NCBI GenBank assembly: GCA_025024175.1
Contig: QCXZ01000137.1
Location: 26,651,327 to 26,715,326, forward strand
Reading direction: 5' to 3'
DNA from: Rhyzopertha dominica
Taxonomy: Eukaryota; Arthropoda; Insecta; Coleoptera; Bostrichidae
Length of the DNA: 64,000 nucleotides
Of this stretch, positions 12,355 to 60,390 are shown in pieces (the first letter of the stretch is position 1; the number at the start of each line of letters is the position of its first letter). The position numbers and the translations under genes were made by a program. The notes under the pieces were generated by a model, which did no database searches, was not told the origin of the DNA, and saw only the letters and a list, made by a program, of their open reading frames with translations.

Positions 12355-12475
12355 CTTTATTAACACACCAATTATATACTAACATATTGATAATCATGAC
12401 ACGCATGCCCTAGTAGGGGCTCGAACCCGCGAGGCCTCCAGTCCCAGAAGCCGATGTGCAATGTACAGGGTGAGC
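12355..12475 (-). mobile_element. tRNA-derived SINE, distal part (interrupted)
   Basis: On the minus strand this carries a B box, GGGTTCGAGCCC (12417-12428 on the plus strand). Its A-box half, TGGTTCAGTAC, lies about 1 kb away at 13433-13456. The two halves are separated by the family B element. Joining the halves gives a continuous tRNA-like head with an A+T-rich tail ending near an AATAAA, typical of an insect SINE. Confidence 0.6.
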
Positions 12476-13424
12476 AAATAAGAGAGGTGGCCGGTCACGT
12501 CTCATAAACCAGTAACCCCTTNGAGGTAAAAAAATTTTAAAGTAAAGTGGCCAAGGCTGGAAAATATTTTGGAGTTTGTAAAGTGACCGCTAGAAGGCTC
12601 TGTGGTACCTCCAAATTACAAAATTAATGTTTATGTCACTTTTAGCCTAATACCTGTCTGCGGTATTAAACATTTTAAGATTGTTTAGACTAAAATCTAC
12701 CATTTTTGTTTAGAACATTTTTTTGTTAAATGTTAAATAAAGGAGTGGGGGGCGGGTGAATATTAATATAGAAGATCGCTAATATTTCAGGTTTGGCTTG
12801 ACCGATTTCAACCAACGAGGTGTCATTTTCAAGAGCTTATGTGCCTTTATAAAAAGTAATTTTAAGTGTATGAACATAGTTTAGTTTGTTTGTTGACCGC
12901 AAGAGAGCGTTTTCTGAAATTACTACCTAAAATCGATTTTTCTCGAAATTTTTAAATGGTGCGGTTTTCACCATTTTAGTCTATATTCAATTGTTCTTTT
13001 AATGAAGTAAATAGCCCAAACAATTTCTGACACTTGAAATTGTTTTTTATAAGGGCACATAAGCTCTTGAAATCGGTCAAACCAAACCTGAAATATTAGC
13101 GATTTTCTATATTAATATTCACCCGCCCCCCACTCCGTTATTTGACATTTGACAAAAAAATGTTCTCAACAAAAATGGTAGATTTTAGTCTAAACAATTT
13201 TAAAATGTTTAATACCGCAGACATTTATTAGGCTAAAAATGACACAGACATTAATTTTGTAATTTTGAGGTACCACAGCGTCATTTAGCGGTCACTTTAC
13301 AAACTCGAAAATATTTTCCAGCAATTTCTCTTGGCCCCTTTACTTTAAAAAATTTTTACCTCTAAGCTCTAGGGCTACTGGTTTATGAGATATGACCGGC
13401 CACCTCTCTTATTTGCTCACCCTG
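12476..13424. mobile_element. TIR/foldback element family B, copy 1 (nonautonomous)
   Basis: The ends are CAGGGTGAGCAAATAAGAGA and its complement, next to TA on both sides, and the inverted similarity extends hundreds of bases inward. Internal landmarks present in both arms include GGTGGCCGGTC, the polypurine/C-rich CACCCGCC tract and CGCTAGA. A second copy lies at 30031-31062. No transposase frame is present. The CAGGG ends with TA flanks suggest mobilisation by a Tc1/mariner-like transposase. The insertion sits inside a SINE. Confidence 0.8.
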
Positions 13425-13480
13425 TACAAATGTACTGAACCACCGAGGCCGGCTACGTAACAGATGTGCTTAGTAAGTCA
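13425..13480 (-). mobile_element. tRNA-derived SINE, A-box part (interrupted)
   Basis: The minus strand reads GTAGCCGGCCTCGGTGGTTC, an A-box-like segment that continues the B-box part at 12355-12475. ATGTAC occurs on both sides of the inserted element, which fixes the empty site. The exact duplication is ambiguous (TA, ATG or AATG). Confidence 0.55.
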
Positions 13481-14347
13481 CTTTACCGAGACTAATCGGA
13501 CCTTTGACATTATTTGTTTATAACCAATTGATGGTATGATGTAGCAAGTGAATATAACCAGTTGTATTTTACACGTTTCCACGGTTCACTTACAGGATGT
13601 GAGAGGACATTGTCGTTTATTTTTTGCCCTTTCGTTTCACTTGATTTACCAAGTATAGTAGAACGTGTACCTTTTATTTGTTTATGTTTCGTATTAGAAA
13701 ATCGGATTTTAATTGATTGGCTTGTGCATTCACGATAAACTTACCGACAGGCAAATATCTTTTTGACGTATTTAGTATTTCGCCAGCAAATTAAATAGTT
13801 ATATGATGGGAGCTATTTGGTTTAAAGAAGTAACTGGTAAGGTGATAAGTTGTGTCGTATACTCTCTTGAGTTCTATTCATATACAGTGTATTTTTTTAC
13901 GTTGTACTTACAGTTGAGTGTTTTATAGCCACATTTACATAAAGTTCCCTATGCATGTAATCCCACCATTAACAAATGCATTGTTTTAAGGTATTGTTTG
14001 TCACTTGTTTCCTGCCCGTACGATTAGTACACCGCTTGTCACTTAAAACGCTAATGGGTGTTGTCTAATGAAGTATGGCGATTATTAGTTGTCGGAAAGC
14101 TAGGAAAAATAACGTGGTTTATAAAGTAGGGGAGGGACCGGATTGATTGAGTATTGATTGAATATTAAATTGAGGGCACAGTGTGATTCAGCGTCAATTT
14201 AGTGTAATTGCACCTTTTGTATTTGAATCCGTATTGATTTCTTCCTAACCAACATTTTAGTAGCCCGTGACAAAAATGATGGATTAAAGAATTCATTGGA
14301 TAAAGTAAGTGGTCTGTATTTATTCAGGGATAAATTTTTTGATTATA
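13481..14347. other. no feature recognised
   Basis: A+T-rich spacer between elements. The last four bases, TATA, abut the family A element and are repeated on its other side. Confidence 0.4.
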
Positions 14348-15316
14348 CAGGGTCCGCCACTTAAAACTCCTCAGGCTCGCATTTTCGCTATTTTTTTAGG
14401 TACAACCTTAAGTTATATATGAAATCGTAGGTCCTTTTAAACTCTTTAAAAATAGAATATTGGGTATACAAACATTTTTTGTTAATTATCATATTTTGCA
14501 ANTAANGTTAATTTTTATAAATATTTTTTAACCTTACCCCGTATAATAAATATTGCTTTATAGTTGGATGCCGCCATTTTGTTAATAGGGTTGTTCAGAA
14601 TTTTTTTAGTGTTATTTTAGTAGCTTATTACGGTACAAATTATGCCTACATACCCATCGCTGCCTACAAAACCCCAAAATTTGAAGTAACTTTTTAATAA
14701 ATAAAGTACAAAGTTCGTTCTACAGAGAGAGAGAGAGAGAGAGAAAGAGGCTAGAAAACGAAACCCTGCGATGAGGCTAGTTTGGTTTTCTACATTACGC
14801 ACTAGACTCATCGCAGGGTTTCGTCCTCTCTCTTTCTCTCTCTCTCTCTCTCTGTAGAACGAACTTTGTACTTTACTTATTTAAAAGTTACTCCAAATTT
14901 TGGGGTTTTGTCTGCAGCGATGAGTATGTAGGCATAATTTGTACCGTAATAAGCTACTAAAGTAACACAAAAAATTCTGTACAACCCTGTTAACAAAAAT
15001 GGCGGCGACAAGTTTTTCTTGTTTTTCACTAAGAAGGTGTAAAAATTACGCATACATTGTAAAGACACAAATTGAAGAAAATAAAAGCCGGCATCCAACC
15101 ATAAAGCAATACTTATTATACGGGGTAAGGTTAAAAAATATTTACAAAAATTAACTTTATTTGCGAAATATGATAATCTGCAAAAAAAAAATTTGGACAC
15201 CCAATATTCTATTTTTAAAGAGTTTAAAAAGACCTACAATTTGACATTTAACTTAAGGTTGTACCTAAAAAAATAAAGAAAATGCGAGTCTGGGGAGTTT
15301 TAGGTGGCGGACCCTG
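14348..15316. mobile_element. foldback element family A, copy 1 (TA flanks)
   Basis: A 969-bp element with inverted arms of about 450 bases. The ends are CAGGGTCCGCCACTTAAAAC and CTAAAACC-type complements, bounded by TATA on both sides, so the target duplication is TA or TATA. Near the centre each arm carries a (GA)n/(CT)n tract and a CCCTGCGATGAGGCTAGT hairpin segment around a roughly 20-base spacer. The minus-strand frames inside (14617-14811, 14877-15200) are byproducts of the arms and are not genes. TA flanks and CAGGGT ends point to a Tc1/mariner-mobilised nonautonomous element. Ns occur at 14502 and 14506. Confidence 0.85.
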
Positions 15317-16058
15317 TATATCTTCATTAAGAGAATATAAAGCACAGAAGTTTTAAACTTTTCTTCACTGGTCAACCCATTTTATTAACTTCGGGATATT
15401 ATAGTGAACAAACATTCTCAGTGTTTATAAGAAGAGGTTATTAAATTAATAAATGTGTGCACAAGCGAATTTTAATATTTATAGTGAATATTAACTTACC
15501 CGTTGGAAAAATGCCCTAGCGGCTAACAAATTGTTGTCAATCTTAATTCGCTACCATGCAGTGATGCGGATTCGTGTTTGCTTGTGGACTTTCTCTTCTT
15601 ACTGCGCTGGCTTTTGATCTGGTGTATAAGTAAATGTGAAGCCATTATTATAAAGTAGCTGACGATGTTGACAAGTACTCGTTAGAAAGTAACATGTTAC
15701 GGATAAGGTGCATGGTATAATACAAGCGATGTTAGAATTGAAAATTACCCATAAGGCAATCAGCTTTTATCCAAGGAAGGTAACCTTTATCTATATCTAT
15801 ATCGTTATGGTTGATTGTAGTCATTGGCATTGTACCAGTCGTATAAGTAAATGTTATAAATTTTAATATTGCTATTTTTATAGCGGGTGTTCAATGAAAA
15901 CGAGGCACCCTCATATTGAAGGGGTTGGGTAGTACCACATTTTGAAGGCATTTTAAAGTTCTTTTTGCATAAGAAAAAAACGATCAATTTCTAGTCTTAT
16001 TTTCTTTTAAAAGCCGTTAAATAAAACGGTCGAGATACGGGTGGATCACAATTTTTAC

Positions 16059-24115: not shown

Positions 24116-24341
24116 AAAGGTGCATTGGGTATTTTATGGGATTTTGTATAAGTCTAAATTGGTTGGTTAGAAATGAGGACGGTCTAATTGTCTTGATGTT
24201 CGTGTTATTTTTAAAAATAAAGCTTGCTCTTCAAAATTGTGGGTTAACTGTTATTACGTATCCGGCGTATTTGCTCACCTTTACATACAGTAGTCCATCA
24301 TCATTAGAAATGTTTAAATTTTTTTATCGTTCAAAATAAAC

Positions 24342-25140
24342 TTGAACGCAACATTATTAGAGCGCTGGAAAGAACTTCCTGTATTACTCGTATGGGCATA
24401 TACATATATAGACGACAAATTCCTTACTTTACTTTTCGCTGACGACCAAGTCATAGCAGATCATGACGATATGATGAGCAAATTAGAGAAAGAATACCGG
24501 AAGTGGGGACTCTTAGTCAATACAGATAGAACAGACTATTTGATGGTAGGCGGAGAAGTTGATGATATACAACTCAGAAATGGAGTTATAAAAAATGACT
24601 GTTGTAAATATATCGCGAGTGAAGATTACAAAACAGGGGATATGCGAAAAGGAAATAAAAAGCCGAATTGAACAAGGAAGAATTGTCACAAGGAAACTTA
24701 ATTCGGTACTGTGGAATAAGCATATAAAGAATAACACGAGACGAATATACAAATCAATTATCGAAAGCATCTTATTCATAGCATATGCAGTTGAAACATG
24801 GACTACACCATCCGTACTCGAGAAAAAGCTATTATCGACAGAAATGAACTATTGGAGAAGGGCGTGCGGACTAATACTTAAAAACAGATTAAGAAACGAG
24901 CAAATAAGAGAAGAATAGGTGTCCGAATCACTATATTCATTAGAATAAAAGCCAAAGGTTAAAGGTGGTATGGACATGTAACACGCATGAGTCCCAAGAG
25001 ATGCCCAAAGAAGATAATAAATAGATTGGAAACCAAGGCGAAGAAGTAAACGGAACAAGCGAACAGAAGATGTAGGAATGATGTAGAAGATGTTATGAAA
25101 AGAAGAAACTTAAATGAAGAAGACTAGAGAGATAGAAAAA
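24342..25140 (+). pseudogene. non-LTR retrotransposon reverse transcriptase relic
   Basis: Frame 1 (24342-24671) carries LLFADDQVIADHDDMMSKLE, the catalytic F/Y-A-D-D box of the RT palm, then WGLLVNTDRTDYLMVGGE of the following RT block. After a frameshift the next segment (24595-24918) gives KEIKSRIEQGRIVTRKLNSV and RRIYKSIIESILFIAYAVET, then LLSTEMNYWRRACGL, matching the post-RT region of RTE/jockey-like elements found in many insects. A third frame gives RWYGHVTRMSPKRCPKK, the usual C-terminal signature, before stops. The endonuclease and N-terminal RT are missing. It is 5'-truncated and frameshifted, as expected for an old LINE copy. Confidence 0.85.
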
Positions 25141-26290: not shown

Positions 26291-26534
26291 AGGTAGTGTA
26301 TCAAACACCAATTGAAAGTGTAGAACATTTAAACAATAAGGTGCATGCAGATTTTTCTCTCCAGGAATGTTAATAGATACGTGTTAAAAGGTCCTTTTGG
26401 ACAGGAAATCAAGCTTGTCAATACAGTGGGGGTAACCTTTTCAACATTTGTTACATTAATGTTATTGAGTAAACATTATCCAAAAATAATATTTCTTTTA
26501 CAATCTCAATTTAATCAAATCATCCAAATTTTAT

Positions 26535-26675
26535 AATGCATGTCTATGCTGTGCTGTCTACACCTCAACCAACTGCAGATAGAACTATTTCGCTGTCATT
26601 ACAGCTCATCAGTGCAGTTTAGGTCTAGTGTAGACAACACGGCATAGAACTGGTTTTGCTTATATACCAAAGCAG
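26535..26675 (-). repeat. hammerhead-bearing dispersed repeat, copy 1
   Basis: About 140 bases align with 45727-45873: both contain CAACCAACT, AGATAG, ATTTCGCTGTCATTACAGC, TCATCAG, TTTAGGTCTA, GGCATAGA and CTGGTTTTGC. The minus strand contains a complete hammerhead ribozyme fold (see the ncRNA entry). No coding capacity, TIR or tRNA boxes are visible. The size and single ribozyme resemble small nonautonomous ribozyme-bearing retroelements (retrozymes or ribozyme satellites), which are transcribed and circularised. That assignment is inference. Confidence 0.75.
26551..26640 (-). ncRNA. type I hammerhead ribozyme
   Basis: On the minus strand the catalytic core is CUGAUGA (26606-26612) and GAA (26589-26591). 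Stem II is GCUGU/ACAGC (26601-26605 with 26592-26596), capped by AAUG. Stem III is AUAG/CUAU (26579-26588) and ends at a U followed by C (26578), giving an AUC cleavage triplet. Stem I is open-ended, as in type I. Its core-proximal part pairs AACTGCA with TGCAGTT (26571-26577 with 26613-26619). After an internal loop, a distal 13-pair helix joins 26551-26563 with 26628-26640, with one G-U wobble. All the universally conserved core bases are present. Cleavage is predicted between plus-strand positions 26578 and 26577. Activity and transcription are not shown by sequence. Confidence 0.85.
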
Positions 26676-27239
26676 CTAGGTGGCTTTGTCATCATGTCAG
26701 TGTAATGCTGACAGATGGCATTGCCATTCTAATTTCTTACTTTCATCCAAATTTTATGTTTCATATTTTTAAGACGAAAAACAATTACCATGTTACCGCT
26801 GCCAATATATTTTGGGTTGCATTTTCAATCTCGTCAGNCCCATTATCATTCGTGAAAGAACCTGTATATTTGAATCAGTCATTTATTAGTAATCCAATAT
26901 ATTTAAAGTAATCGACATCGTTTTTTTCTCTTGTTTTCAGCAATTTGCATCTAAATTGTCAGTTTCGTCCAGCGGAGCTAGCTCAATCCTATAATATCTT
27001 TTGTTGAGAAGTAAGGGTGAAAAGGGATTTTGTCAATGTTTCTATTTGTTCCTAGAGGATTATTTGATCCTGTGTGGTGTAGGGAGTGTCGTTATTTTAG
27101 TCGACTTCTCGTTCGATAGCTCATCTTGATGTGATGCATAAGGCCGACTCGCCGGGTTCCGAAAGTCGCGCGTAAAATATATTATAACGTTAAAATATTT
27201 TGAAAATAAGAAAAACTTCCAGAGGCAAAGTTATGCAGG

Positions 27240-27690: not shown

Positions 27691-27830
27691 AGAAATTTCA
27701 TTAGGACCCTGATGGTTCAGTGGCAGCATGTTTGACTAGTAATCAAAAGGTCCCGTTTTAAATTTTGTTCAGAGCTGGCAATACTTGTTCATTAATAAAT
27801 AAATCTATCTGCAAAATACACAATTAACTT
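27670..27830 (+). mobile_element. tRNA-Thr-like SINE relic
   Basis: TGGTTCAGTGGCAGCATG is an A box. TTGA/TCAA (27732-27735 with 27743-27746) encloses CTAGTAA, the anticodon loop of tRNA-Thr(AGU). The B-box region TCCCGTTTTAAATTTT is worn. It shares its leader TATATATGCC(G/A)CTTTGACC with the copy at 42130-42240. A tail with AATAAATAAATC follows. Confidence 0.6.
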
Positions 27831-28707: not shown

Positions 28708-30030
28708 TTTAAAATCTTTCAAAATAACTGAATCTTTGCTAATGAATAAAAAAATAAGCAAACCATTTGTTGTTTTTAAGTACGTTAAAAATATATTACA
28801 CTCGATGATATAATTAGTTCATAGAATTAATGACAAAGATATAGTAAAACAGAGGCTCTGGATTTGGAGTAAATCTCTGAGAGTTGGGAATGCAAATCTG
28901 AATTTCAAAATACTACCGTTTGCAATTTTCTAACTTAAACTATTTTCAATAAAAACGATTTAAACGAATAACTTTAATTTTACCGAATGAGATCCTAAAC
29001 CGACGTAATGTAAATTTTAGTATACCTATCTAAATAAGTAAAAGTTTCATTACATTTAAACGACCACACTCTTTACCCTTCCTTGCCAAACTTACTACGA
29101 GGAATTAAGGCCCTCCGGCTTTCCCTCATTAACGCACGGGTTTGATTCAAGATCTGGATATTATTAATATGAACCCTAACTTAACCTCTTTGTTTTCAGA
29201 TTTCAAAATTTGTATTTGATACTAAACCAAACCATATCTGCTTAAAAAAAGATTATTCTCATATCTCTGTAACGCTGTATGAAGCCAGAAGAACAAAATC
29301 AGCCAGTTCTTCTATAATAAACTTCTTTTATCGAACCCTGCGGGGGTAGAAGAATAAATTGCGATCGAAGCAAATTTCTGCTCTAATTTTAATGTTAAAT
29401 GCACATTTACCATATGAAAATCACGCCTTCGGTGATAACGATAGTAATTAAAAGTGACTGCTAAAAGTATGTTCTTAAGAAACTATATTTAAGATGATAA
29501 GTCAATGTATATTTTTTCTTGTTAAAGGTATAAAAGTAGCCTGATATTATATTCTTTAAAAAATAATATTGACATGAATCTTGAAAAGTGTGAAAACTAA
29601 AATAAAAGTCTTTTGTTTTCTATTTACAAAAAGAAATTGGCCGTCACCTTTATTCTATCGGGAGTTTATTCCACAGTGAACATTTGTCTGTAATTTGTAA
29701 TCACTACATATTATAAAACAAACTATTCATCGGATTTTCATGCAATTTTCACCAATAGATAAAATGATTGATGAGAAAGGTTTAGGTATATAATTTGTTA
29801 AGGTTTTTGGTAAATTAGCTGAAATATAACGATTGAAGGAGTCGGGAACAGTCAAGCTCTTGGGAGCTTTCATCGGAAACGCTGCCTAATCCATTTGAGA
29901 TATAACAAAATTATGCATGGTGATGTATTCTTGTTTTATAGATCTAAAAAAAAAATTCGCGATGATATATATATCTATCTTTTAAGGATAGATTACTATA
30001 CCCATTCTTTCTTTAAAAAATGGTCATGTA
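28708..30030. other. no feature recognised
   Basis: A+T-rich, unpaired, no protein motif seen. Confidence 0.4.
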
Positions 30031-31062
30031 CAGGGTGAGCAAATAAGAGAGGTGGCCGGTCATATCTCATAAACCAGTAGACCTAGAGCTTNGAGGTAAA
30101 AAATTTATTAAGTAAAGTGGCCAAGAGAAATTGCTGGAAAATATTTTCGAGTTTGTAAAGTGACCGCTAGAGGGCGCTGTGGTACCTGCAAATTACAAAA
30201 TTAATGTTTGTGTCATTTTTAGCCTAATAAATGTCTGCGGTATTAAACATTTTAAGACTGTTTGGACTACCATTTTTGTTTAGAACATTTTTTTTTGTTA
30301 AATGTCAAATAAAGAAGTGGGGGCCGGGTGAATATTAATATAGAAAATCGCTAACATTTCAGGTTTGGCTTGACTGATTTCAACCAACGAGGTGTCATTT
30401 TCAAGAGCTTATGTGTCTTTATAATTTGTGTGTTGACCGCAAGAGGGTGTTTTCTGAAATAACTACCTAAAATCGATTTTTCTCTAAATTTTTAAATGGT
30501 TTGGTTTTCACCATTTTAGTCTATATTCAATTGTTCTTTTAATAAAGCAAATAACCTTATATCTTTGCATTAAATTTTTTTTTTTATATTTAGGTAGTAA
30601 CTTCAGAAAACGACCTCTTGCGGTCAACACACAAATAATGTTCTGACACTTAAAATTGCTTTTTATAAGGGCACATAAGCTCTTGAAAACAGCACCTTGT
30701 TGGGTGAAATCGGTCAAGCCAAACCTGAAATATCAGCGATTTTCTATATTAAGATTCACCCGCCTCCCACTCCTTTATTTGACATTTAACAAAAAAATGT
30801 TCTAAACAAAAAAAGGTAGATTTTAGTCCAAACAATCTTAAAATGTTTAATACCGCAGACATTTATTAGGCTAAAAATCACACAAACATTAAATTTGTAA
30901 TTTGGAGGTACCACAGCGCCCTCTAGCGATCACTTTACAAACTCGAAAATATTTTCCAGCAATTTTTCTTGGCCACTTTACTTAATAAATTTTTTACCTC
31001 AAAGCTTTAGTGCTACTGGTTTATGGGATATGACCGGTCATCTCTCTTATTTCCTCACCCTG
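30031..31062. mobile_element. TIR/foldback element family B, copy 2
   Basis: CAGGGTGAGCAAATAAGAGA at the left and the complement ending CTCACCCTG at the right, both next to TA and within ATG(TA)...(TACA)ATG. The interior corresponds along its whole length to copy 1 at 12476-13424 and is about 80 bases longer, mostly because copy 1 lost or this copy gained sequence around the central TTTCTGAAAT block. The 69-codon minus-strand frame inside is a shadow. Nonautonomous. Confidence 0.8.
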
Positions 31063-32904
31063 TACAATGCGGTAATTGGAAAGCTATTTAGACGGATACG
31101 GATACATAATTTATTTTATAAGCATCTTTATCAACGTAAATACGCTAGTTAGCTTAAGCTTTTCATGCACATTATTATAATATTTTACAACATATAATTT
31201 AAATGACTATCTTAGGAGTTATCGCAAAAAGTTAACTCGCACGAAAATAAATTCAAAGGCGTTTTTCATACTGATGACGGGACTCGCTTGATGCTATCAC
31301 TTCCGCGCCACGCTGCGCCCCCGGCTGTCGCCCATTCTTTCTATACATTATATAAGCCGATCGATACTCGCGTGCTCTTATGGAATGGAGGTGACGACTG
31401 GAAGGTATTCGTTGTACGTATAATACCGCGTGTAATAATTTACAACCAACATGTCGTTGTGTATATCTGACAATTATTTATGCAACCATATAAAAACGAA
31501 CACTAATCCGATAAACATAAATACATGCGACCTTAGACGTTAATATTATTTTTATACCGTGGGTTTATTATTAGTAGTATCAAGTGAATGTAATATCAGT
31601 TTTCGTTTATGTTTTAATTTTTAGAGCTAATAAGTATCGTTTCATATTTATCAACATTTCACCATAGTTTTTGTATTGCGCTTAGCTAAACAACAAATAC
31701 TACAATTATTAAAGTAATCAACGTACCACACTGTTCAACAAACAATTAAACTGCAAATAGCAATTTCATCGTATAATTGCGATAATAATAGAGGTTGTTA
31801 CTGGCCGTTTTTATAGGTTCTTGTGCGCGAAAGAAAATGCATCGTTATTTCCATATAATGTTAATGAGAGAAATTACCTCCAATAACCAACACGGAGTTA
31901 TTGTTTGTTAATTAAACATTCGATTACTCATTCGGTTGCTACATGTGTAAAACACACTAATAGCCTATATCAAACAAATTTAAAATTTTTCCGTTGATAT
32001 CGCATTTGAACGCTATTATTGAAGCTGGCGCTTACATTACATATTTATTCTAATAATGTAATCCACTTACGTGTAAATGTGTATCATGCAGCTCTAATGA
32101 GCGTGTACTGCCGTGTTCTCTGTGAAGGCTAATTTTGTAACTACTGCTACATCGTTGTCGCTTTCGGTGGACCGTTTAATCAGGAGGTTAAATAGTTTGA
32201 ACTTTTCATTAGGTGAATTGTAACACTGATAATAGTTTGCTGGCGAGCGGTGTACCCTATTAAACTGTTGTGAAACGTGCTTAAACATGTTATGTTGTTA
32301 ACATTGGGATCGTGCTTCTTATTTTTTTAGCGATTGGGTTAATTAAGATTATGTTAGTACTGAGCTCCCGAGATGTACGCGTACTGCTGCTAGGCATAGC
32401 AGGTTTATTTCCCATATGAATTTCTTGGCTTTCTGTTTAATTTAATTTATTACTAGTAGTAGGCAAAAATAATTGTTTTGTTGTAATATTGTTTATGANA
32501 TATTTGTACCGTTTTCGCTATTTTTATGGAATTGTAGGTCCTTGTATGTAAGCATTTAGCAACATTTGATGATATAAAGTGTGCCTTGTAACTTCTTTTT
32601 TATTGTTATTTGGAAAATTGTCAGAAGGCAGATGACATAAAATTTTGCACAATGACAGAAGACGCTTAAAAATAGATCGACTTGTTTTCATATGTAATCT
32701 GACATTAATGAAATGATATTTTCCCATAGGTGACAGTAACTCCGATAGTTGCTAATGAAATTCTAAATTATTTGCTCTAATAATGATCGTTCACTTGGAT
32801 GGATAAAACTTGCCTACACATTCCCTCAATGGACAAAAGATCGTCCTGAATCGTTAGACCAGCTTAATTACTTAACGTACACCAAAAGTTAAGCTGGTTC
32901 TATT
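31063..32904. other. no gene recognised; small CpG-bearing patch at left
   Basis: 31260-31400 keeps several CpGs and a 60-codon frame (31288-31470) without motif. The remainder is A+T-rich. Nothing is repeated elsewhere, and an N is at 32499. Confidence 0.35.
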
Positions 32905-45726: not shown

Positions 45727-45873
45727 TAAAAAATGCTTGTCTGTGCTGTNCTGTCTGCTTTGCAACCAACTACAGATAGATCTATTTCGCTGTCATTACA
45801 GCTCATCAGTTGTTTAGGTCTAATGCAGATAGCATGGCATAGAGCTGGTTTTGCCTATATACTAAAGACTTGG
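45727..45873 (-). repeat. hammerhead-bearing dispersed repeat, copy 2
   Basis: Aligns with 26535-26675 over its whole length with scattered substitutions and small indels. Flanking DNA differs between the copies, so they are independent insertions. No target duplication can be read. An N lies at 45750. Confidence 0.75.
45742..45842 (-). ncRNA. hammerhead ribozyme, decayed stem I
   Basis: The minus-strand core is the same as in copy 1: CUGAUGA (45803-45809), stem II GCUGU/ACAGC (45798-45802 with 45789-45793), GAAA (45785-45788), stem III AUAG/CUAU ending in an AUC triplet (C at 45775). The core-proximal part of stem I is damaged by a two-base loss (AACAA against UGUAGUU), and the distal helix has one mismatch. 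The catalytic core is intact, so slow or no activity is predicted. Confidence 0.7.
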
Positions 45874-47689
45874 TATGATATTAGTAGAAAAATAGATGCC
45901 AGTGCAATACATTAGTATTTAGCTTTGTAGCCATCTTAATGGCGTTGTGACTTGAAAACAACTGAGTTACGAATGGCCGAATTTAACGAGAATGCTAGCT
46001 AATGTAAATATTGCAAGTTATTCGCTAGATGTGTCCGTCTGTCTACCTACTCGTATTCCGAGAAACATCGAGGACGTCTGCTAACGAGCTGGAATATGCT
46101 CAACGCAAATCAAGGCGAACAAATAGAAAAGTGCGTCAGACGTATCCCAGGATTGAAGAACACTCAGTACAGCAACCACTGCATTCAAGGTGTAATAATA
46201 CACAAAAGACCTTTTTTTTACCTTCTCCACAGAAAACTGAAACATTGTTATTATGCAAAGCATGTAAAACGATCAACCTCAGAACTAATAATGAACAAGC
46301 CACTTCGTTTCTCATTTGGCCTTCCCTACAATATCTGCATGTGGTACCTACCAAGTTATATTCTCGACGTAAACAAACACTAATATCAAATATTGTTGGT
46401 CGGTATGTCTGATAAAAGCAATAAATTCAATTATTTAATCACATAGGTAAAGGACAAACACTGGTAAATGGATTGCGTAGTTATTTTGTTGTTTCTCTTT
46501 GCTTCAGATAATAACATATACTGGATAAATGCTCAGCGCTTAATAACTTCATTACTTCAATATACTGGGTTCAATTCAATTTTGGTCGTAAGTCTGTTAG
46601 TTAAGTTTTGACAGAGCTCTGTCCATCATCAGCTGCAATTAAACATTTATTAAAAAAATCCGAGAAACTGCATATCACTGCCATAAACATCACTTACGAA
46701 TACGTCTGAGATGAGAAATATTTTCAATATTAAAAAAAATCTGTGGTGGCTGTATCTTTAATGCATCCGTGAATTGGACACGTCTCTCTTAAATACGTGG
46801 TAGAGGAGGTAGGCTAAAATGAATATGACAAAGATTAATTCATTCAAAGTATAATTATCGTATAATCTTACCAACACAAGATTATCTTATTGGTAGGATT
46901 TCCTTTCCTTGAGAGTCTGCATTGTTGTTACACAGTTATATTAATTATTTGGTAATCAATAAAGGAGCGGCCCAACACAAGATATTTGTTTTGGATCGCA
47001 TTCCATCTCTACTTGATTGCGCAATAACAAATCAGTAGAATTGTTAAGCTACGTTTTTGGCGAATTTAACATTTATTTAATTCTATTGAATGAAATATTA
47101 TGTACATATTTGTCAAGTATTATGTATTATTTTTAAATGATTCCAATGTAAGTTGTAAATGGGGAGATTGATTATAATAAATAAATAAATAATTCTTTTT
47201 CACTTTCGCTGATATTTTACTGTTGGTTCAAACCAACAAAGCCAACCATAGTACCAACTTATGTCGTAGGTCCCAAACCTACCATCAGATAACACATTAC
47301 CGATTTTAATAAATACGTCAGTTGATCATAGAATCATCGAAATATCGTATATTGCTTACTGCTTATTTAGAGACTTTATTTGTAAATAACGTGCATTAAT
47401 TACAGTTTATACTGTTTCTACGTTTACGTAAGTACTTAGAGAGGCATATCTGTGTTTGTTGGTATCCTTCGTCTGATGAGCTGAAAAAACAACTCAACTC
47501 AACTCAACTCATGAGTCACAAGCATTATTTGCTGTTCTTTTAATTGGCATACTCCTTCCAAATTACAAATGTGAAGCGAGCATCAGTGGTACATCTAAGA
47601 CCAACAAAGTTTAATTTGCTAAATAGGATTAGCAGTAATATAAAGTCTAATCTCTATTAAAATTTGGAAACCGTACACTGTACCCATTT
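45874..47689. other. no supported gene; simple repeats
   Basis: 46029-46412 contains two overlapping plus-strand frames (127 and 95 codons) with polar, Arg/Lys-rich composition, but no motif recognised. (AATA)n at 47178-47193. (CAACT)n, about four units, at 47487-47511. A weak hammerhead-like core is at 46605-46632 on the minus strand. Confidence 0.35.
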
Positions 47690-48629: not shown

Positions 48630-49110
48630 AATATAAAATGTACAGAAATGCGAAAAACTTCTGAGATCTCATGTAAAACCAATTCAGTTATTTTATAGTA
48701 TCTATGGAAAGCACATATTCAACAACTTTGTCGTCATAAATAGTTTCCTAATTAGTTACCTACCAACATTTATAGTGACCCTATCAATTTTAGACATCTT
48801 TATTTCTGTAGTAAATATAATGACTTGGCAGTAGCACGGCAACATAATATAGTAGATTATTCTTATGTGATTATGTTGCCGTGCGATTGCCAAGTCATTA
48901 TATTTATTATAGAAATAAAGATCTATAATATTGATACGGTCACTATAAATGTTGGTAGGTAACTAATTAGGAAGCAATTTTAAAAACAAAGTTGTTGAAT
49001 AGGTGTTTTCATAGATACTAACTAAAATAACTGATTTTGTTAACATGATATCTCAGAACTTTTTACGGTGAAAGGACTGCGTTGCCAAACTTTATATACA
49101 TTTTATGTTT
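48630..49110. mobile_element. foldback (MITE-like) element
   Basis: Two arms of about 220-240 bases are inverted copies. Paired landmarks are ATAAAATGTA, TTCTGAGAT(C/A)TCATG, CAACTTTGT, AGTTACCTACCAAC, TTTATTTCT and GCACGGCAACATAAT. The centre is near 48858. No coding sequence. The ends are worn and no clear target duplication is visible. Confidence 0.75.
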
Positions 49111-50018
49111 TTGACTTAATTGTTTATTTCAAAAGTGAAGTTGATTTCCATTTAAAACAACTTTTGTGAAGGAATCAAACTGTTTGCATGATTTTTATGT
49201 ACATTTAGCAATGAGCATGTTTAGTCTCTTTTTAATTGCCCCAAAGTTTAACAAAAGTTGAGTTGATAAATTTTATTTCGAAGAATGAAGATCCGTGGTC
49301 CATTAAAACTTCATTGTAGAAACTTATTAAAACACTCTTTAGCTTTGTGTATGCTTCAAAAACTTAACACACCACCTAACACACATTTACGCCTCGTTTA
49401 AACAAACTGTAAAATGGTTTGTCGGATTGTATATAACCTTTGTATACTGGCATTTTTAACAACACATCACCATGTTTTTATTGGTTCTGATAATGCTTTT
49501 TACTTGTCCTTTTTTGGATTTTTAAAACTTATGTTAATAGATTGACTTATAAAGCTGTTAGTGATATATTTCATACAACTGGTGAACATATTAGAAGAAT
49601 TGTACAAGGCAGAAATCATGTTAAGACTCCTGATTAATACAACAGCCTACGTAGGCTGAGGCACATAATTAAACACTTAAATCTATATGAGGCAGGAAGG
49701 GCCCGGAGGTGGCAGTTCAGGCTCAAAAGAAACAGCTGCCCTCGTGGGTCCTGCGTACGCCCATGTTTACCATTATCTGTTCTTCTCCAAAAATGAGTTA
49801 AACAACAAAAACAAGGCAATATAGTTCATTATTATTTTCTTAGGTATTTATTTGCCTTTCCTTCTGTAGTTGATTGGGATGCAAACAGCATAGCACATAC
49901 ATGCATTGTACATTGCTTCATTTTTGCAGGTAATATTACTAGTAATGGTGTGAAAATAATAATGACATAAATATAGTTGTGCATAACTCACTTCATAAAA
50001 AAATTGTTGCAATTTACA
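49111..50018. other. no feature recognised
   Basis: Mostly A+T-rich. A G+C-richer patch at 49640-49790 has a 61-codon minus-strand frame without motif. Confidence 0.35.
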
Positions 50019-59060: not shown

Positions 59061-59370
59061 AGATATGCACTTCAAGCATATAATGTCTGCTCTATTTGAA
59101 TCTTAAAAATGTTAGCCACCTGAAAATGTAAGATATCCTACTATCTGCTGTAAAACTAATGTAGTATGATTAACTAATGTTACCTAAACTAATTTTTTTT
59201 TTACAATTTATGGCAGTTTCTTAAAATTATCAGAACTAAATAGGATATAAAAAAGTACAAAACAGTTGCTTGCTCTATTCACTAAAGTTACCGTTCTATA
59301 TCCACATATCACCTATTTTGAAAGACATTCCTATGATTTCTTTGAATCTTTTTCTGTTACAGTAGAGTAA
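59061..59370. other. no feature recognised
   Basis: A+T-rich spacer between the RT relic and the family A element. It may include worn 3' sequence of the LINE. Confidence 0.35.
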
Positions 59371-60390
59371 CAGGGTCCGCCACCTAAAACTCCCCAGGCT
59401 AGTATTTTCTTTATTTTTTAGATACATCCTTAAGTTATATCTCAAATTGTAGTTTTTTTTTAATTTCTTTAAAAATAGCATAGTGGGTGTCTCAAAAATT
59501 TTTTGCAGTTTCTCATATTTTGCAAATAAAGTTAATTTTTGTAGCCTTACCGCGTATAATAAATATTGCTTCATAGTCGAATGCCGACTTTTGTCTTCTT
59601 CAATTTGTGTTATTACCATATATGCGTAATTTTTACTCATTCTTAGTGAATAACAAGAAAAACTAGTCGCCGCCATGTTCTGTTAATAGGGTTGTTCAGA
59701 ATGTTTAAGTGTTTTTTTAGTATATTATTACGATACAAATTATGCCTACATACCCATTGCTGCACACAAAACTTTAAAATTTGGAACAACTTTTAAATAA
59801 ATCAAGTACAAAGTTTGTTCTATAGAGAGGGAGGCTAGAAAATGAAACCCTGCGATGAGGCTAGTGCGTGATGTAGAAAACCAAACTAGCCTCATCGCAG
59901 GGTTTCGTTTTCTAGCCTCTCTCTCTTTAGAACAAAACTTATACTTATTTATTTAAAAGTTACTCCACATTTTGGGGTTTTGTGTGCAGCGATGGGTATG
60001 TAGGCATAATTTGTACCATAATAAACCGTTAAACTAACACTTAAAAAATTGTGAACAGCCCTATTAACAGAACATGGCGGCGGCGAGTTTTTCTTGTTTT
60101 TCATTAAGAAGGAATAAAAATTACGCATATTTGTAATGACACAAATTGAAGGAGACAAAAGTCGGCATCCAACTATAAAGCAATATTTATTATACGGGGT
60201 AAGGTTAAAAAATATTTACAAAAATTAACCTTATTTACAAAATATCATAATTTGCAAAAAAAAATTGGACACTCACTATGTTATTTTGAAAGAGTTCAAA
60301 AAGACCTACAATTTGACATATAACTTAAGGTTGTACCTAAAAAAAGATAAATAAAGTACGAGTCTGGGGAGTTTTAGGTGGCAGACCCAT
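59371..60390. mobile_element. foldback element family A, copy 2
   Basis: Starts CAGGGTCCGCCACCTAAAAC and ends with the worn complement GTGGCAGACCCA. The arms and the central CCTGCGATGAGGCTAGT hairpin match copy 1 at 14348-15316. The central spacer is the reverse complement of that in copy 1, so the two elements sit in opposite orientation. The long minus-strand frame at 59296-59676 is an arm byproduct. Flanks no longer show a clear TA duplication. Confidence 0.82.

What the first reader, a model, noticed from the sequence alone, without database searches (positions are those of the whole stretch)
26551..26640. Nearly textbook type I hammerhead ribozyme in a small dispersed repeat
The minus strand has every conserved core base (CUGAUGA, GAA, A15.1-U16.1), a perfect 5-pair stem II with a 4-base loop, a short stem III with an AUC cleavage triplet, and an open stem I of 7 pairs plus a 13-pair distal helix separated by an internal loop suited to tertiary contacts. 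Such preservation in an otherwise decayed region suggests recent mobility or selection. Ribozyme-bearing small retroelements (retrozymes, Dolichopoda and newt satellites) are established; this specific family is not one I can name.
Basis: partly seen in the sequence, partly recalled or inferred. Interest (0 to 1): 0.9.

Follow-up and report, generated by a model that had tools for sequence, protein, structure and literature searches.

The report
Ribozyme retroelement with Penelope-style insertions
The window holds one copy of a large, young family of tiny non-coding jumping elements that carry a self-cutting RNA, and the way the copies sit in the chromosomes suggests that they borrow the copying enzyme of Penelope-type retrotransposons, a link so far only proposed.

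Summary
The hammerhead is real: core and stems read as described, with cleavage expected between 26578 and 26577. It is not a two-copy curiosity: the exact 28-nt core occurs 2,522 times in the window's own 479-Mb genome (reversed control 0). The full unit is a 351-nt monomer found in tandem, like known animal non-LTR retrozymes, and its stem pairs covary (40 double-changed cells, shuffle mean 9.6, 0 of 500 as high). New is the insertion architecture. Of 70 sampled blocks 44 are head-to-head, none tail-to-tail; of the 44, 32 have one arm ending at site A and one at site B, none two A or two B ends; 28 of the 32 are flanked as a whole by 10-17 bp duplications. Penelope-like elements of this genome show the same layout; one LINE control does not (0 of 30 places), but a tRNA SINE does (6 of 39). 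Best reading: a retrozyme copied from circular or multimeric RNA and inserted by Penelope-type machinery primed on both DNA strands. Cleavage, circles and the enzyme are inferred.

The parts
26520..26534 (.). target-site duplication, left copy (TCATCCAAATTTTAT)
   Evidence: exact 15-bp match with the right copy; score 15, while none of 2000 mismatched flank pairs reached 12
26531..26674 (-). arm A of the insertion: monomer positions M255-351 then M1-47, carrying the hammerhead; outer end at site A
   Evidence: 97% identity to the 351-nt monomer L003:1597-1947
26606..26612 (-). hammerhead core box CUGAUGA
26592..26605 (-). stem II, 5 pairs, loop AAUG
   Evidence: its fourth pair is G-C or A-U among copies
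26578..26591 (-). GAA, stem III (3 pairs, loop GUUC) with A15.1-U16.1, and C17; expected cleavage 26578|26577
26571..26619 (-). proximal stem I AACUGCA/UGCAGUU enclosing the ribozyme
26543..26648 (-). distal extension of stem I: 13-pair and 7-pair helices
   Evidence: one A-U/G-C pair covaries
26669..26747 (+). arm B of the insertion: monomer positions M169-247, inverted relative to arm A; outer end at site B
   Evidence: 96% identity; A/B head-to-head layout in 32 of 44 head-to-head blocks
26743..26757 (.). target-site duplication, right copy
45730..45908 (-). older copy, M215-351 then M1-45 (80%), core intact, two bases missing in stem I
49863..49910 (+). old fragment, M350-351 then M1-46 (79%), begins within 2 nt of the expected cleavage site
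   Evidence: such starts are not clearly enriched in the sample

Best explanation
This is a copy of a young, abundant, non-coding, non-autonomous retroelement of the animal non-LTR retrozyme kind. Shown from sequence: a 351-nt monomer with one type I hammerhead, tandem and partial copies, target-site duplications, and head-to-head arms with two different, fixed outer ends. Inferred: transcripts cut themselves at the hammerhead, the monomers become circles (or stay as multimers), and a Penelope-like reverse transcriptase with GIY-YIG endonuclease makes a staggered break and lets both broken DNA strands prime on the same RNA, one at site A (M46-50 in 44 of 59 A arms) and one at site B (M237-247 in 36 of 40 B arms; counts), on either side of the ribozyme hairpin. 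The two cDNAs run along the template for varying distances, sometimes more than one monomer, and join, often with a few bases of overlap, leaving a head-to-head composite between duplications of about 10-17 bp.
For: Ribozyme; covariation 40 double-changed cells, shuffle mean 9.6, 0 of 500 as high. Family: 2,522 exact cores, reversed control 0; 1,427 candidate places for the monomer, 40 scored, 176 matches, many tandem at 350-353 nt. Architecture (70 blocks): 44 head-to-head, 0 tail-to-tail, 26 direct; of the 44, 32 A/B, 12 with one unclassified end, 0 A/A, 0 B/B; duplication score of 10 or more in 28 of the 32 and in 34 of all 70, against 5 of 2000 mismatched flank pairs. Among the first 100 exact cores listed on contig C1, neighbours within 1 kb are 8 head-to-head, 8 direct, 0 tail-to-tail (within 3 kb 11, 8 and 2). 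39 of 99 A- or B-ended arms exceed one monomer, the longest 1,742 nt. Units of one insertion differ by a median 0.86% (75 pairs), units of different insertions by 2.15% (2,335 pairs); 0 of 2000 label shuffles as low (74 units of the loci). Arm joints have a gap of 5 nt or less in 35 of 44. Same genome: one natural frame with RVT_1 and GIY-YIG (L079); among 144 GIY-YIG matches, neighbours within 6 kb are 20 head-to-head, 1 direct, 0 tail-to-tail; 7 of 7 composites examined have one short end and one about 35 nt longer, with TSD-like repeats of 10-18 bp. LINE control: 0 head-to-head at 30 places. Published PLEs: inverted pseudo-LTRs, TSD, optional 31-bp tail on one (PMC3846280, passages); a purified PLE protein cuts and extends both strands (PMC11167929, passages and part 1 of the main text).
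Against: No RNA data and no cleavage assay. cDNA 5' ends are not clearly enriched at the cleavage site (3 of 99 arms within M349-M3, about 1.7 expected). Circular and tandem-locus templates are not separated: homogeneous arrays would give similar units. No similarity between Penelope and retrozyme ends was seen; blastn of the monomer against 22 loci (20 GIY-YIG loci plus two fetched pairs) hit only retrozyme pieces outside the composites in L091 and L093 and a chance-level 23 nt in L079 (E 0.85). A and B are 157 or 194 nt apart on the circle, not the ~35 nt of the Penelope tail. Rfam found no hammerhead in 14 GIY-YIG loci, though most may lack the 5' region. L090, listed for GIY-YIG, gave no Pfam hit as translated, unexplained. 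A tRNA SINE is also head-to-head with TSD-like repeats, so the layout is not specific to ribozyme elements and could reflect a general feature of this genome. The LINE control is one old family and one internal segment. Only 5 of 26 direct blocks have a clear duplication. The 70 blocks come from best matches and are not a random sample. Minimum-energy folds hide the core.
Confidence: 0.7

Rival explanations
1. The same retrozyme, but moved by a LINE; the head-to-head copies are ordinary twin-priming inversions.
For: TSD lengths would fit LINEs too, and overlaps at the joints are also known for LINE inversions (both recalled). The tRNA SINE, a class usually moved by LINEs (recalled), shows the same layout.
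Against: Both outer ends are fixed and different (32 A/B, 0 A/A, 0 B/B), whereas twin priming has no fixed second site (recalled). The LINE of this window has 0 head-to-head pairs at 30 places; GIY-YIG elements have 20 and no tail-to-tail. In two of the three SINE composites whose ends were printed, one arm has an extra ~33 nt, as Penelope arms do.
Confidence: 0.16
2. The element is a piece of a Penelope element itself (solo pseudo-LTR), not an independent retrozyme.
For: Penelope pseudo-LTRs carry type I hammerheads (PMC7761336, passages) and can lie inverted with a TSD (PMC3846280, passages).
Against: In three same-strand frames over about 3 kb downstream of each of the three window copies, no Pfam match reaches its cut-off (best E 0.17). 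The unit repeats as 351-nt monomers up to nearly five in a row with no stop-free stretch above 90 aa. The Penelope family found here has other ends. Penelope hammerheads are described as minimal, lacking helix III or the loop contacts; this one has stem II of 5, stem I of 7 and stem III of 3 pairs.
Confidence: 0.08
3. A foldback DNA transposon or satellite that happens to contain a hammerhead.
For: Head-to-head arms give terminal inverted sequence.
Against: The outer ends are two different sites, arm lengths and inner joints differ between places, and 5'-truncated direct copies with a duplication exist (L025, L028).
Confidence: 0.03

Closest known systems
Animal non-LTR retrozymes (Cervera and de la Pena 2020, PMC7229834; parts 1-4 of 6 of the text read)
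   Same: Type I hammerhead, monomer of ~170-400 nt in tandem, GC below 50%, no coding capacity, TSD longer than 4 bp, self-paired predicted circle.
   Different: Head-to-head two-ended composites are not mentioned in the parts read; that paper calls PLEs a strong candidate helper without insertion evidence in those parts. Circles are not shown here.
Penelope-like elements with inverted pseudo-LTR and tail (PMC3846280 and PMC11167929, passages and one section)
   Same: Head-to-head arms, TSD, two unequal outer ends, tandem or partial tandem structure.
   Different: The retrozyme has no ORF; its two ends lie 157 or 194 nt apart on the monomer instead of about 31-35 nt.
Hammerhead HH9 of amniotes (Rfam RF02275)
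   Same: Best Rfam match, 28.5 bits; CUGCA/UGCAG in stem I and GCU/AGC in stem II are shared.
   Different: Below the gathering score; HH9 is a conserved single intronic copy (recalled), this is a mobile repeat.
Hammerhead repeats of Dolichopoda, newts, Schistosoma and Aedes (PMC3088659, passages)
   Same: Type I hammerhead in a repeated element; a stem-loop III that is palindromic and could pair in a dimer (ATAGTACTAT in 70 of 114 aligned copies; Aedes figure legend).
   Different: Sequences were not compared; here dispersed short arrays and head-to-head composites, not a long satellite.

Membership tests
Type I hammerhead ribozyme | Conserved core, three stems, stem I open | tested here: met
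Type I hammerhead ribozyme | Covariance-model hit over the curated threshold | tested here: not met
   window copy: HH9 28.5 bits, gathering 52. Elsewhere in this genome 22 of 25 listed places pass RF00163, not compared with this family
Type I hammerhead ribozyme | Stems kept by compensatory change | tested here: met
   72 distinct sequences; the alignment was fitted to the structure and relatedness inflates the counts
Type I hammerhead ribozyme | Self-cleavage | not testable with these tools
   needs a transcription assay
Animal non-LTR retrozyme | Short tandem monomers (about 150-450 bp), each with one type I hammerhead | tested here: met
   tandem units of about 351 nt
Animal non-LTR retrozyme | No coding capacity, GC below 50% | tested here: met
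   GC 43.9%, longest stop-free stretch of the tiled monomer 90 aa
Animal non-LTR retrozyme | No LTR, primer binding site or polypurine tract | not tested
   no specific search made
Animal non-LTR retrozyme | TSD longer than 4 bp when present | tested here: met
   10-17 bp in the 34 of 70 blocks that score 10 or more
Animal non-LTR retrozyme | Circular RNA in tissue | not testable with these tools
   no RNA data held
Penelope-like element | RT plus GIY-YIG ORF in the element | tested here: not met
   none in the monomer nor downstream of the three window copies; such an ORF exists elsewhere in the genome (L079)
Penelope-style insertion | Head-to-head arms, two unequal ends, TSD around the whole | tested here: met

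The most novel reading that the evidence does not exclude
Retrozyme circles are natural two-primer rolling-circle templates for Penelope enzymes: both broken strands of one staggered cut prime at two fixed unpaired sites on either side of the ribozyme hairpin, giving head-to-head concatemers, and the same enzyme also moves a tRNA SINE in this genome. A Penelope element would then be a general helper for small non-coding RNAs, as LINEs are.
Probability: 0.45. Interest if true: 0.86.

Novelty: new variant of a known kind. Interest (0 to 1): 0.72.

Why it matters
Which enzyme moves the animal retrozymes was still a proposal in the papers seen here (PMC7761336 of 2020, PMC8969392 of 2022, PMC11722881 of 2024; passages). 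Insertions with a Penelope signature make it testable with a purified protein and a 351-nt RNA, and would explain why copies are tandem and inverted. In library searches, judged from listings and from the passages opened, no paper was seen to report two-ended head-to-head retrozyme insertions; subscription papers, preprints and supplements were not searched.

Tried and rejected
Copy 3 (49863-49910) begins at the cleavage site and first looked like an integrated cleavage product; among 99 arms 3 start within M349-M3, about 1.7 expected, so it is no proof. Reading the 138-bp shared stretch as the whole element, with a TATA-like motif as promoter, was dropped once the monomer proved to be 351 nt. 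A MITE reading was dropped because inner joints vary. Two scans of viral contigs found nothing. With two sequences only, pair counts were uninformative (123 of 500 shuffles as high). Paper searches were too broad to use; one gave PMC3088659.

Full report
OBSERVATION. The minus strand at 26571-26619 reads as a type I hammerhead with no core mismatch. A descriptor with stem II of at least 4, stem III of at least 2 and stem I of at least 5 pairs finds it once and never in 400 shuffles. Rfam's best overlapping family is HH9 at 28.5 bits, E 0.0053 for the window and 3.3e-5 for 401 bases, below the gathering score of 52. The hairpin goes on for 13 and then 7 pairs. The minimum-energy fold of 150 nt is far more stable than shuffles (z -6.4), but it keeps the long stem and hides the core.

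FROM HAIRPIN TO ELEMENT. Two further pieces lie in the window. The own genome (479 Mb, 138 contigs, unnamed; the window is C136:26651327-26715326) gave 45 matches to the 138-bp shared stretch, 40 of 53 candidates scored. L003 holds two copies in line; from cleavage site to cleavage site the monomer M is L003:1597-1947, 351 nt. A search with M had 1,427 candidate places, scored 40 and gave 176 matches, many at 96-98% in tandem. The exact 28-nt core is present 2,522 times, and 0 times read backwards.

INSERTION ARCHITECTURE. I mapped 40 loci (41 held, L020 a duplicate) and 30; without duplicates 70 blocks remain. I classed outer RNA-3' ends as A (M36-58) or B (M226-258). 44 blocks are head-to-head, 26 direct, none tail-to-tail. 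Of the 44, 32 are A/B, 7 A/other, 5 B/other, none A/A or B/B. Of the direct ones 20 end at A, 3 at B, 3 elsewhere. A duplication score of 10 or more is seen in 29 of 44 head-to-head blocks (28 of the 32 A/B) and 5 of 26 direct blocks; mismatched flank pairs reach it in 5 of 2000. So the duplication flanks the whole composite, and the two arms entered in one event. Inner joints vary; 35 of 44 have a gap of 5 nt or less and 28 overlap. In the window the A end is at 26531, the B end at 26747, the duplications at 26520-26534 and 26743-26757.

TEMPLATE. 25 of 59 A arms and 14 of 40 B arms exceed 351 nt; the longest is 1,742 nt, nearly five monomers. Units of one insertion are more alike (median 0.86%) than units of different insertions (2.15%); no label shuffle of 2000 reaches that (74 units of at least 200 nt from 27 places). 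Choosing places close to M should make the second value small, so I take the contrast as conservative (inference). Circle and homogeneous array remain undecided. In the predicted circular fold A falls in a hairpin loop (M43-46) and B in the unpaired stretch M232-247, a prediction for one monomer.

SELECTION. In 72 distinct ribozyme sequences 96.6% of cells pair; 40 cells change on both sides, shuffle mean 9.6, none of 500 as high. Most come from the fourth pair of stem II (G-C 56, A-U 13) and one distal stem I pair (A-U 51, G-C 18). A few ancestral events can explain many cells, so this is support, not a probability.

HELPER. GIY-YIG gave 144 matches, 150 of 2,080 candidates scored. Neighbours within 6 kb are 20 head-to-head, 1 direct, 0 tail-to-tail. 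L079 has RVT_1 and GIY-YIG in one natural frame of 556 aa; L085 has both with X at stops, L090 neither. In 7 of 7 composites read, one arm ends near ...ATAAGAAAAAT and the other about 35 nt further; TSD-like repeats are 10-18 bp, scores 9 to 15, some running into element ends. This is the published Penelope layout: inverted pseudo-LTR, TSD, a 31-bp tail on one (PMC3846280, passages), with both strands cut and extended by a purified protein (PMC11167929). LINE control: 36 matches at 30 places, none head-to-head or tail-to-tail. tRNA SINE: 6 head-to-head, 0 tail-to-tail at 39 places; of four composites fetched, L094, L095 and L096 have TSD-like repeats (score 10, 11, 14), L097 a weak one (8), searched in wide stretches without a null; L095 and L096 have a one-sided tail of about 33 nt. 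Either Penelope also moves this SINE, or the layout has another cause; only wider controls can tell.

VERDICT. A new family of a known kind (animal non-LTR retrozyme) whose insertions bear a Penelope signature. I hold the first part at about 0.93 and the Penelope helper at about 0.7. No call names the organism; retroelement make-up and genome size suggest an animal, probably an arthropod (inference).

Noticed in passing
27705-27825 (+): Decayed copy of a tRNA-derived SINE whose genomic copies also occur head-to-head, with TSD-like repeats and, in two composites, a one-sided tail: possibly a Penelope-moved SINE.
   Followed up: partly
own genome, e.g. G000:C1:24990961-24991003: 25 places listed for Rfam RF00163, 22 over the cut-off (74 of 57,767 candidates scored); not compared with this family, so other hammerhead families may be present.
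   Followed up: no
14344-15320 and 59338-60354; 12461-13429 and 30026-31067; 48738-48980: Foldback or MITE-like elements, two of them in two copies; weak miRNA-family hits at two of these places fall on their hairpins.
   Followed up: no
24318-24915 (+): Decayed LINE-like reverse transcriptase fragment (RVT_1 E 0.046, below cut-off); relatives at 70-84% identity, 30 places including itself.
   Followed up: partly
L043 (C41:43107477-43109223): Array of nearly five monomers whose units differ from each other by at most 2 substitutions.
   Followed up: no
monomer positions 73, 149, 169-173: cDNA 5' ends recur at a few positions (149 four times in A arms; 73 four times and 169-173 eight times in B arms); the sample is biased and two of the loci may share ancestry.
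   Followed up: no
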